DNA of 64,000 nucleotides from Nocardia sp. NBC_01730 (GTDB lineage Bacteria; Actinomycetota; Actinomycetes; Mycobacteriales; Mycobacteriaceae), in assembly GCF_035920445.1 (NCBI RefSeq), contig NZ_CP109162.1:1736001-1800000 (forward strand), in the 5' to 3' direction. The translations under genes were made by a program, and so were the position numbers. Of this stretch, positions 50,701-53,363 are shown piece after piece; the first letter of the stretch is position 1, and each line of letters opens with the position of its first letter. The notes under the pieces were generated by a model, which worked only from the letters and a program-made list of their open reading frames with translations, was not told where the DNA came from and searched no databases.

Positions 50701-50756
50701 AGAAAAAGGGAAAGGAGAGTACTTACTCCTTTCCACTCTCAACATATAGCGCACTG
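50701..50756 (+). promoter_or_regulatory. promoter with conserved palindrome before the second RAE
   Basis: An A-rich run, a perfect inverted repeat with arms GGAAAGGAG and CTCCTTTCC (50709-50734), then CATATAGCGCA with the -10-like TATAGC at 50745-50750. It matches the region before the intact rgt in order and spacing. Confidence 0.65.
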
Positions 50757-50777
50757 GGGGGCTTGTGGCAAGACCCG
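50757..50777 (+). promoter_or_regulatory. rifamycin-associated element (RAE) upstream of truncated rgt and helR
   Basis: GGGG, one base, CTTGT, a central G, GCAAG, one base, CCCG: the same layout as the element at 46351-46371, with the core CTTGTGGCAAG differing from the usual core at one base. It lies just after the TATAGC -10-like box. RAE control of helR is known in Streptomyces. Confidence 0.8.
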
Positions 50778-50835
50778 GGTAGTGCCGCAGAATTGCCCGG
50801 CCGAAGCCAGAACTCAAGGAAACGGGAGTCGTGAA

Positions 50836-51123
50836 GTGCGTGTGTTGTTGTCGACGTATGGGTCGCGCGGGGACGTCGAAACGTTGGCGGGACTCGCGGT
50901 GCGGTTGCGGGCACTCGGCCCGGATACGCCAATCGGCGCGGCAGACGAGGGTCCGACTCCGACCACCGAGTCCCTGTCCGCCGCGCTCGAGATCGCCTTG
51001 GTCCCCGAGACCGGTGCCCGCGCGGCTGCCGTGGCCGGCACGATCCGCACCGACGGGGCGACGGTGGCCGCGACGCTGCTGCTCGACGCGCTCACCCGAG
51101 AGAAGCCGCCAGTGTCCGCGTGA
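50836..51123 (+). pseudogene. rgt-type glycosyltransferase with large in-frame internal deletion
   Basis: A 95-residue frame with a GTG start joins the N-terminus (VRVLLSTYGSRGDVETLAGL) directly to the C-terminus (GPTPTTESLSAALEIALVPE). Compared with the intact copy at 45051-46292, about 320 residues including both substrate sites are missing, yet the reading frame is kept to the stop at 51121-51123. The stop overlaps a GTG (51120) in the helR frame, so translation of this short frame may still feed ribosomes to helR. Confidence 0.85.
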
Positions 51124-51161
51124 ACCACGCGGCATCGTCGAGCCAGGGAAAGCGAGGGCAT

Positions 51162-53363
51162 GTGTCAACTCAGGGGTACGAAGACGAATTGCGGTCCGAG
51201 CGCAGCTACGTGGCCGGGCTCTACACGCGGCTCGACGCCGAGCGACCGCGAGTGGAGGGTAGATACAACGCGGCGTTGCGGGGAAACGGCGGGTCACCCA
51301 TGGAACGGGATGTCGAGGTACGCGCGCTGGCCAAAGAGGTGAAACGGCTGGATGTGGCCGACAGCGGGCTGTGTTTCGGACGGCTGGACACCCTTTCGGG
51401 CGAACATTCCTACATCGGCCGGATCGGCCTCTTCGACGAGGAGAACGAGTACGAACCGCTGTTGCTCGATTGGCGGGCACCGGCGGCGCGCGCGTTCTAC
51501 GTCGCCACCGCCGCGACACCGGAGAATATGCGTCGGCGCCGCCAGTTCCACACACGCGGGCGACACGTGGTCGATTTCACCGACGAGGTACTCGGCCGCC
51601 CCGATGGTGGCGAGCGAGGGGACGCGGCCCTGCTCTCGGCGGTCAACGCCCCGCGCGGTGACGGGATGCACGACATCGTCGCGACGATCCAGGCCGAACA
51701 GGACGAGATAATCCGGTTCGATCACCCAGGGGTGCTGGTGATCGAGGGGGGCCCGGGAACCGGGAAGACGGTGGTGGCGCTGCACCGCGTCGCATACCTG
51801 CTCTACACCCAGCGGGAGCGGATGGAACGCCAGGGTGTGCTGGTGGTCGGGCCCAACCCGGCGTTCCTGAACCACATCGCCCACGTGCTGCCGTCGCTGG
51901 GCGAGACCAACGTGGTGTTCACGACCACCGGTGGCCTCGTGCCCGGGCTGCGCGTCACCGCCGAGGACACCCCGGAAGCCGCACGGCTCAAGGGTTCGCT
52001 GAAGATCCTGGATGTGCTCGCGGCGGCGGTCGCCGACCGGCAGCGGCTGCCGGAGCATCCGCTGCCGATCGAACTGTCGGACGTCACGGTCCGGATCGAC
52101 GCCGAGACCGCGGAGTGGGCCAGGGAGGAGGCGCGCGCAAGCGGGCTGCCGCACAACGAAGCCCGCGCGGTGTTCCGCGAGATCGTCACATGGGTGCTCA
52201 CCGAACGGGCGATAGCCCGCATCGGCCGGGGCTGGCTGACGCAGACGGACCGCGAAGCATGGGAGCAGCTGCGGGAGGACCTGCTCGAGGAGCTCGCGGA
52301 CCACGACACGTTCACCGCCGCGCTCGACGAATTCTGGCCGATCCTGACGCCGGAAACAACACTGGCACAGCTGTACACGTCCCCCGAACGCTTGCGTGCG
52401 GCGGGCGCCGACCAGGCACTGTTGCGCGCCGATGGCGACGCCTGGACGGTGTCGGACGTGCCGCTGCTCGACGAACTGGTCGACCTGCTCGGCCGCGACA
52501 AGCTGGCCGATCAGGCCGCCGAGCGGGAACGGAAAGCCGAGGCCGAGTACGCCGCCGGCGTGCTGGACATCATGATCAGCCGCGAGGACCTGATGGACGA
52601 CGAGGACCACCTGCTGGCCCAGGACATGCTCTACGCCGAAGACCTGGCGGGCCGCTTCCTCGAGCGCGACACCCGGGAACTCGCCGAACGCGCTGCCGCG
52701 GACCGGGACTGGACCTACCGGCACGTCGTGGTCGACGAGGCCCAAGAACTGTCCGAAATGGACTGGCGGGTGCTGATGCGGCGCTGCCCGGGCCGATCCT
52801 TCACAGTGGTCGGAGATCTCGCCCAACGCCGGTCGGCGGCCGGAGCGGCATCGTGGGACACGATGCTGGAGCCGTACGTGCCCCGCCGCTGGGTCTACCG
52901 GCCGCTGTCGGTGAACTACCGCACCCCGGCGGAGATCATGAACGTCGCCGCCGCGCTGCTCGCCGAGTTCGCACCGGAGGTCCGGCCACCGGAGTCGGTC
53001 CGCGCGTGCGGCGTCCAGCCCTGGTCCAGGCAGGTCAGCGAGGACGAACTGTCCACAGCCATCGAGGAATTCGTACAGGACGAAGCCGGTTGTGAAGGAA
53101 CCAGCGTCGTGATCGGGCCACCAGGTGTGCCGGGCGCGGTGGTGGCCTCGGCGACGAAGGGCCTGGAGTTCGACGCCGTTCTGGTCGTGGAGCCAGAACG
53201 GATCCTCGCCGACGGCCCACGCGGTGCGGCCGAGCTCTATGTCGCTCTCACCCGCGCCACCCAACGCCTCGGCGTCCTACACCGGGGCCCATTGCCGCAT
53301 GCCCTGACCGGACTCTCCGAAACCGGGACACCCACCCAGGCCGGGAATCAACGGTTGGCGTAG
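51162..53363 (+). CDS. helR: HelR, RNA polymerase-associated helicase-like protein conferring rifamycin tolerance
   Basis: The product has 733 residues; I chose the GTG at 51162 (STQGYEDELRSERSYV), although the GTG at 51120 that overlaps the previous stop is possible. An N-terminal coiled-coil arm is followed by a UvrD-like motor: Walker A VIEGGPGTGKTVVALHR (about residue 195), HVVVDEAQELSEMDW (Walker B), VVGDLAQRRSA, LSVNYRTPAEI and the late motif TKGLEFDAVLVVEPE with LYVALTRATQRLGVLH. HelR proteins bind RNA polymerase and displace rifamycins. The RAE at 50757-50777 fits the known drug-inducible control. It appears intact. Confidence 0.92.
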   Translation: MSTQGYEDELRSERSYVAGLYTRLDAERPRVEGRYNAALRGNGGSPMERDVEVRALAKEVKRLDVADSGLCFGRLDTLSGEHSYIGRIGLFDEENEYEPLLLDWRAPAARAFYVATAATPENMRRRRQFHTRGRHVVDFTDEVLGRPDGGERGDAALLSAVNAPRGDGMHDIVATIQAEQDEIIRFDHPGVLVIEGGPGTGKTVVALHRVAYLLYTQRERMERQGVLVVGPNPAFLNHIAHVLPSLGETNVVFTTTGGLVPGLRVTAEDTPEAARLKGSLKILDVLAAAVADRQRLPEHPLPIELSDVTVRIDAETAEWAREEARASGLPHNEARAVFREIVTWVLTERAIARIGRGWLTQTDREAWEQLREDLLEELADHDTFTAALDEFWPILTPETTLAQLYTSPERLRAAGADQALLRADGDAWTVSDVPLLDELVDLLGRDKLADQAAERERKAEAEYAAGVLDIMISREDLMDDEDHLLAQDMLYAEDLAGRFLERDTRELAERAAADRDWTYRHVVVDEAQELSEMDWRVLMRRCPGRSFTVVGDLAQRRSAAGAASWDTMLEPYVPRRWVYRPLSVNYRTPAEIMNVAAALLAEFAPEVRPPESVRACGVQPWSRQVSEDELSTAIEEFVQDEAGCEGTSVVIGPPGVPGAVVASATKGLEFDAVLVVEPERILADGPRGAAELYVALTRATQRLGVLHRGPLPHALTGLSETGTPTQAGNQRLA

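What the first reader, a model, noticed from the sequence alone, without database searches (positions are those of the whole stretch)
50701..53363. helR driven by an inherited rgt promoter through a gutted rgt gene
The second RAE promoter reads into an rgt copy reduced in frame to 95 codons, whose stop overlaps a possible helR start. The enzyme is gone, but promoter, RAE, leader and translational coupling are kept. This looks like conversion of an enzyme gene into a leader for helR after duplication of rgt.
Basis: partly seen in the sequence, partly recalled or inferred. Interest (0 to 1): 0.7.

Follow-up and report, generated by a model that had tools for sequence, protein, structure and literature searches.

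The report
Eroded rifamycin-resistance operon ahead of helR
In this Nocardia-type chromosome the gene for a rifamycin-inactivating enzyme has shrunk in frame to a 95-codon remnant between a drug-responsive promoter element and the RNA-polymerase rescue gene helR, one of several such erosions of an old two-gene operon, and the element itself is flanked by two mirror-image promoter-like boxes that may help explain how the drug is sensed.

Summary
The 95-codon frame (50836-51123) is Rgt residues 1-28 joined in frame to 350-412; its stop overlaps a GTG in frame with helR. The predicted intermediates exist: 9 of 103 RAE-bearing helR loci in the genus have full-length rgt between RAE and helR, including the nearest on the tree, and rgt scars lie in 17 of the other 94 (window included; shuffled references 0-2). 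So this is a reduced RAE-rgt-helR operon whose promoter and leader helR inherited. "Duplication of rgt" is not supported: the intact rgt at 45051-46292 groups with Streptosporangiaceae, a separate, probably foreign copy. Retained coupling has comparative support: the overlap stays in helR's frame in 8 of 8 full operons examined and both in-frame gutted ones. Unexpected: RAE lies between two exactly mirrored -10-like boxes (102 of 103 and 65 of 68 loci; none at 20 other offsets). The T-first box (TAnnnT) points away from the resistance gene and the other, mostly CAnnnT, towards it in 48 of 51 further RAEs; an outward hairpin with U-tract is common. RAE may be a pair of opposed promoters rather than only an operator. 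No transcription was tested.

The parts
50699..50734 (-). terminator-like hairpin with U-tract, reading away from helR (stem 50734-50709)
   Evidence: only terminator-like site in 50500-51400; shuffled mean 0.7; fold -14.3 kcal/mol, z -2.90, and the counterpart by the standalone rgt z -4.75
50741..50746 (-). outward -10-like box TATGTT (TAnnnT), mirror image of 50788-50793
   Evidence: transcription not tested
50758..50776 (.). RAE palindrome; holds both opposed -35-like hexamers
50788..50793 (+). sense -10-like box CAGAAT, 19 nt from TTGTGG in RAE
   Evidence: transcription not tested
50836..51123 (+). gutted rgt frame, 95 codons: Rgt 1-28 + 4 junction codons + Rgt 350-412
51120..51122 (+). 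GTG overlapping the stop (GTGA), in frame with helR, 14 codons before the start where homology begins
51162..53363 (+). helR (HelD_MYCSM / HelR_2 models), 733 aa
45051..46292 (-). intact standalone rgt, 413 aa, separate and probably foreign copy (context, not the parent of the remnant)
46352..46370 (.). RAE of the standalone rgt

Best explanation
This is a reduced RAE-rgt-helR operon. The ancestor had one RAE promoter driving rgt and then helR, with the rgt stop overlapping an in-frame helR start. In this lineage 316 codons of rgt (net) were lost in frame; the HHGGAGT stretch, recalled as the sugar-donor motif, lies in the lost part. Promoter, leader, rgt start, frame and stop/start overlap stayed. 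helR is now read from the RAE promoter through a 95-codon frame, and ribosomes finishing it could couple into helR, which also has its own start signal 42 nt on. The same operon eroded repeatedly and to different extents in relatives. Shown: homology, in-frame deletion, intermediates, scars, tree position of the other rgt. Inferred: transcription from RAE, coupling, order of events.
For: The nearest helR relative (G118) has full RAE-rgt-helR (SH-aLRT 90, not starred). Remnant vs that operon: 145/163 over RAE, leader and codons 1-28, and 188/227 over the 3' part with the intergenic stretch; vs own rgt 118/163 and 130/155. Full-length rgt between RAE and helR in 9 of 103 RAE-bearing loci, and rgt followed by a close helR in Rhodococcus tibetensis, Solihabitans and Kutzneria. 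Scars in 17 of 94. A second in-frame gutting, 216 codons (L103). Sister pair L036 (full) / L021 (no rgt; leader 78/83 identical, then helR at once). No sigma70-consensus promoter in 50500-51400, which also means that the RAE promoter itself is not caught by that scan.
Against: No RNA or protein data. Codon statistics cannot tell a maintained leader from a relic (dN/dS 0.57 to G118; 0.38-0.73 among four intact operonic copies). helR has its own SD-like start, so coupling may not be needed. For the three loci without a recognisable RAE and for short leaders without scars, rgt loss is not shown. Parts of the deeper helR tree are weakly supported and genes cross genera, so the root state is uncertain. 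In L010 the rgt start frame is out of register with the retained C-terminal part; in L023 a start in the rgt position ends after 5 codons, 70 nt before helR.
Confidence: 0.82

Rival explanations
1. The 95-codon frame is a plain relic: an in-frame deletion was tolerated because it did not hurt helR, and the peptide and its translation do nothing. (A rival on function only; it shares the origin.)
For: Most of the 103 RAE-bearing loci have helR close behind RAE with no detected rgt sequence. A residue invariant in the five-sequence Rgt alignment (P16) is changed in the remnant. Codon statistics show nothing special.
Against: Of 92 loci screened, 9 had a recognisable rgt start; its frame ends within 45 nt before helR or fuses with helR in 9 of 9, the other two frames in 5 of 18 (one-sided Fisher 0.0004; 7 of 7 vs 5 of 14, 0.007, without two trivial cases). 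Related genomes are counted apart and L023, not caught by that screen, goes the other way. The overlap stays in frame in 8 of 8 full operons examined and 2 of 2 in-frame gutted ones. This may mean only that overrunning helR's start is harmful.
Confidence: 0.45
2. The small frame arose from a duplicate of the standalone rgt.
For: Both copies lie within 5 kb; part of the 3' piece is 130/155 identical to the standalone copy.
Against: The standalone copy is 77-79% identical to Sphaerisporangium, Microbispora and Nonomuraea Rgt and groups with them (100/100), across a 100/97 branch from the remnant. The remnant is nearest operonic rgt genes.
Confidence: 0.04
3. The ancestor was RAE-helR and rgt was inserted several times between RAE and helR.
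For: Most loci lack detectable rgt; with other genera included, Nocardia operonic rgt genes are not one clade (4 changes), so some replacement or transfer happened.
Against: Scars with different end points, a sister pair full/lost (L036/L021) and full operons in several genera fit loss better where scars exist.
Confidence: 0.2

Closest known systems
RAE-controlled rifamycin resistance genes of Actinobacteria (rgt, rox, arr, rph, helR)
   Same: 19-bp RAE upstream of helR and rgt; in M. smegmatis helD the RAE is said to overlap the -35 of promoter 2 (PMC10719064, section 9 and passages read), as the sense box would have it here
   Different: RAE reads through a gutted rgt; conservation extends beyond 19 bp, with mirrored -10-like boxes and an outward hairpin, not mentioned in what I read
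B. subtilis helD/pps dual-promoter rifampicin alarm (PMC12802891; abstract, sections 47 and 48 and passages read)
   Same: a box directed away from the resistance gene that fits the consensus better opposes a weaker one directed to it
   Different: B. subtilis promoters are convergent, 39 bp between starts, and shortening by 17 bp (steric overlap) abolished induction; here the boxes are divergent and share RAE, so the mechanism cannot simply be carried over
Translationally coupled operon genes and regulatory upstream frames (recalled)
   Same: ATGA/GTGA stop-start overlap
   Different: the upstream frame is a decayed enzyme gene; no conserved peptide or attenuator was seen
Divergent transcription from symmetric bacterial promoters (recalled; no call)
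   Same: two opposed promoters arising from sequence symmetry
   Different: here the -35-like hexamers overlap in a palindrome, the -10-like boxes lie 19 nt out on each side, and the polarity is fixed

Membership tests
RAE-regulated gene | 19-bp RAE palindrome upstream | tested here: met
RAE-regulated gene | induction by rifamycin that depends on RAE | not testable with these tools
   needs RNA
HelR / class II HelD | curated model above cut-off, full length | tested here: met
   HelD_MYCSM 1473 bits (cut-off 1051), HelR_2 1406 (1100); M. smegmatis HelD chain 6yxu_H, E 0
HelR / class II HelD | removes rifamycin-stalled RNA polymerase | not testable with these tools
   biochemistry
Rgt glycosyltransferase (50836-51123) | complete enzyme | tested here: not met
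   residues 29-349 absent; 76.5 bits against cut-off 800; no Pfam domain at E<=0.001
Rgt glycosyltransferase (45051-46292) | full-length Rgt above the curated cut-off | tested here: inconclusive
   full length (1-411), 456 bits, but below the NCBIfam cut-off of 800; enzyme activity not tested
Translationally coupled leader frame | start overlapping the stop, in frame with the downstream gene, conserved | tested here: met
   use of that start not tested; L010 is an exception
Translationally coupled leader frame | downstream translation depends on upstream translation | not testable with these tools
   reporter experiment needed
B. subtilis-type dual-promoter alarm | convergent promoters about 39 bp apart | tested here: not met
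   boxes are divergent and share RAE

The most novel reading that the evidence does not exclude
RAE is not merely an operator for an unknown factor: it is the overlapping -35 region of two mirror-image promoters. The outward one (TAnnnT) is the better match, and its transcript ends after some 40 nt at a dedicated hairpin in many loci; the inward one (mostly CAnnnT) drives the resistance gene. RNA polymerase itself would then be the rifamycin sensor: traffic on the outward promoter keeps the inward one low, and drug-bound polymerase shifts that balance. The gutted rgt-helR unit is one of several cargo rearrangements behind this portable sensor.
Probability: 0.35. Interest if true: 0.85.

Novelty: new variant of a known kind. 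Interest (0 to 1): 0.62.

Why it matters
It documents, with intermediates, how an antibiotic-inactivating enzyme gene can erode to a short frame while its drug-responsive promoter is inherited by a target-protection gene, and that this happened more than once. It also offers a concrete, testable idea on an open question named in the two papers read in part here (PMC12802891, PMC10719064): how RAE senses rifamycins, for which an unknown factor is suggested there.

Tried and rejected
Duplication of the neighbouring rgt as source of the remnant: rejected by trees. Selection on the peptide: Nei-Gojobori counts give no signal; one search had the C part shifted by one codon and was discarded. One search used a wrong start offset for the protein comparison (its DNA result stands; protein redone). 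One search read minus-strand loci unturned; redone. In one search a cheap long gap gave unreliable break points; of it I use only the L021/L036 leader identity, the rest was replaced. I first read the outward -10 as TATATG at 17 nt (notes); the invariant columns fit TAnnnT at 19 nt, the exact mirror of the sense box. Consensus sigma70 scan of 50500-51400: no site, so neither RAE box is a consensus promoter; the RAE -35-like hexamer matches only three of six consensus positions (by eye). Upstream hairpin: in other-genus rgt loci 52 of 68 pair at 8 or more of 9 positions, at most 43 in 200 arm swaps; in Nocardia helR loci 35 of 103 against at most 39, mean pairing 7.00 against at most 6.89, so weak there. 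Outward hairpin with T-tail: 21 of 103 and 35 of 68; three simple (mononucleotide) shuffles each gave 0-1; sense strand 2 and 0. Hairpins without the tail criterion are as common on either strand (77 vs 73 and 60 vs 59). The own rox-like gene and that of L273 stay below the cut-off of the rifampin monooxygenase model (341 and 412 of 800 bits; both sequences cut by the locus end), so I call them rox-like.

Full report
1. What is there. The window lies in an 8.68-Mb one-contig genome. Its genus is Nocardia by inference: same-genus handles G025 and G143 have contigs of the same length and match place as named records of N. australiensis and N. vulneris. The best RAE cores of the genome lie at 46352-46370 and 50758-50776 in the window and at 1049919-1049937 outside it; the last stands 58 nt before a rox-like FAD monooxygenase gene. 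From the RAE at 50758 the plus strand reads into a 95-codon frame (50836-51123) and helR (to 53363). The frame is Rgt residues 1-28 joined in frame to 350-412. helR matches the curated HelD_MYCSM and HelR_2 models and M. smegmatis HelD.

2. Relatives. In one search, 150 of 150 genomes of the genus had some HelD match (147 of 147 of the more complete ones); its table of matches is cut at the low end. I took the 107 loci at 70% or more identity (one per genome, window included; count checked) and 3 more distant ones as outgroup: 30 loci. With up to 4 substitutions RAE was found in 103 of the 110; the seven without are L039, L049, L074, one cut by a contig end (L108) and the three outgroup loci. 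So 103 of 106 usable helR loci have a RAE. A full-length rgt lies between RAE and helR in 9 of the 103: G118, G012, G143, G031, G029, G030, G025, G113 and G120; in G120 helR lacks its first 225 residues, a reciprocal loss. Two more carry in-frame gutted rgt: the window and G094 (216 codons, residues 1-49 + 242-406). Against the coding part of full-length operonic rgt, 17 of the remaining 94 loci (these two included) give hits at E<=1e-3; six codon-shuffled reference sets gave 0, 0, 1, 0, 2 and 2, reversed and reverse-complemented ones 0. Pieces differ: C-terminal (G121), internal (G141, G142), N-terminal only (for example G092). For the other 77 no scar was detected at that limit.

3. Trees. 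The window's helR groups with that of G118 (full operon; SH-aLRT 90); with other genera added, Rhodococcus tibetensis, also full, joins them (90). Solihabitans and Kutzneria helR with full rgt lie inside the Nocardia set, so the cassette has crossed genera. Reading the tree by eye, full and reduced forms alternate within supported groups (L036/L021; L045 with L024, L027, L028, L033; L040-L046 with L051), which means several separate losses if the operon is ancestral there; I did not compute their number. Among 80 named rgt loci (the best of at least 586), 69 have a RAE within 400 bp and 37 have a HelD-family match starting 33-365 bp downstream, all 37 with RAE; 5 are close to the window's helR (82-88%) and 32 are a more distant type at 34-37%. 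So rgt followed by helD/helR is a widespread arrangement.

4. The neighbouring rgt is not the parent. It is 77-79% identical to Sphaerisporangium, Microbispora and Nonomuraea Rgt but 63-66% to four Nocardia operonic Rgt, and sits with the former at 100/100. The remnant lies across a 100/97 branch, nearest operonic rgt; in the smaller tree, without those genera, the standalone copy lay next to four operonic ones. RAE, leader and first 28 codons of the remnant are 145/163 identical to G118 and 118/163 to the own rgt. A probably foreign rgt with its own RAE is thus present beside a reduced operonic one; the order of events is unknown. At blastn E<=1e-15 the whole window matches the 19 kb around the cassette in G118, G120 and G012 only in rgt/helR.

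5. Coupling. In the 8 full operons examined (G120 has no helR start to examine) the rgt stop overlaps an ATG or GTG that is in frame with helR and opens 11-15 codons before its homologous start; both in-frame gutted operons keep this (four of the eight are close relatives). L010 does not. Of 92 loci screened, 9 had a recognisable rgt start; its frame ends within 45 nt before helR or fuses with it in 9 of 9, the other two frames in 5 of 18; L023, outside that screen, goes the other way. Two loci of another family of the order (G288, G294) have RAE, an N-terminal rgt remnant and then a rox-like gene, with the remnant's stop overlapping its start; in G294 the frame is shifted inside but restored before the overlap. 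This points to selection on reading-frame geometry rather than on the peptide, but cannot separate true coupling from avoidance of overrun. Codon counts are uninformative.

6. The promoter. Ungapped stacking on RAE of 103 Nocardia helR and 68 other-genus rgt loci (68 of the 69 with RAE) shows conservation beyond 19 bp. Counting RAE base 1 as 0, nearly invariant columns fall at 31 and 35 (sense box CAnAAT, 30-35) and, on the other strand, at -12, -13 and -17 (TAnnnT). These intervals are exact mirror images about the RAE centre, each 19 nt from a TTG-hexamer within RAE. The outward TAnnnT is exact in 103 of 103 and 65 of 68; the sense xAnnnT in 102 of 103 and 67 of 68, with C first in 102 and 65; background TAnnnT on the outward strand is 7 of 5768 and 11 of 3808 positions. 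Both boxes (xAnnnT) together occur at mirror offset 0 in 102 of 103 and 65 of 68, and at none of 20 other offsets. Beyond the outward box a hairpin with its U-tract on the outward strand is common, not universal. As a further test I took RAE cores by pattern alone from the order: the 30 loci and 20 more places of its partly unlisted table, plus the own rox-like gene. Both boxes with T first on one side only were seen in 29 of 31 and 19 of 20. In all 48 the best tblastn hit of helR, rox-like, rph, arr or rgt reads away from RAE on the non-T side (one, L255, only from 678 bp; a second, weaker hit elsewhere would not show); none lies on the other side. The sense box begins with C in 43 of the 48, G in 4 and A in 1. 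The exceptions are L261 (no such gene), L267 (helR) and L289 (arr; last base of the outward box differs). The rph, arr, rox-like and second helR queries came from loci of this set; their NCBIfam matches are arr and HelR above cut-off, rph and rox-like below it on sequences cut by the locus end.

7. Mechanism. The anatomy suggests two opposed promoters sharing RAE. The sense box agrees with the published promoter 2 of M. smegmatis helD, whose -35 overlaps RAE; that review also reports a promoter 1 upstream and says induction was lost when half of RAE was deleted, a change that would hit both boxes (PMC10719064, section 9 read). The B. subtilis alarm has a stronger antisense promoter opposing a weak sense one (PMC12802891, sections 47-48 read), but is convergent, and steric overlap abolished its induction; this argues against simple transfer of that model. 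A palindrome-binding factor remains possible. Long spacers and poor -35 matches are further cautions. The outward transcript is unproven.

8. Literature. Six text searches were answered; in their listings, and in the passages and sections I read of four papers, I saw no mirrored promoters at RAE and no gutted rgt before helR. Three primary papers I asked for (one DOI recalled) are not held, so novelty is limited to what I could see.

Noticed in passing
L279 (G120), near 10034-10035: Reciprocal loss: full-length rgt kept, but the segment matching window 51139-51836 is missing, so helR lacks its first 225 residues.
   Followed up: partly
L273 and L274, downstream of RAE: RAE, N-terminal rgt remnant, then a rox-like gene, with the remnant's stop overlapping its start; a parallel to the window's arrangement before a different gene.
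   Followed up: partly
L024, L027, L028, L033 upstream of helR: A GTG or TTG in the rgt start position is in frame with helR without a stop, predicting an N-terminally extended HelR.
   Followed up: no
window 49394-50599 and 55647-56474: Phage-integrase-family matches on both sides of helR (the second just under Pfam's cut-off); 53518-54048 minus is a stand-alone C-terminal DNA ligase piece. The region may be an insertion-prone island.
   Followed up: no
G000:C1 716321, 2063728, 2950097, 6939962, 7978795: An identical RAE-like 19-mer (3 mismatches to the pattern) occurs five times in the genome, perhaps a dispersed repeat unrelated to RAE.
   Followed up: no
loci L168-L247: 37 of 80 rgt loci have a HelD-family match directly downstream, 32 of them a distant HelR type.
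   Followed up: partly
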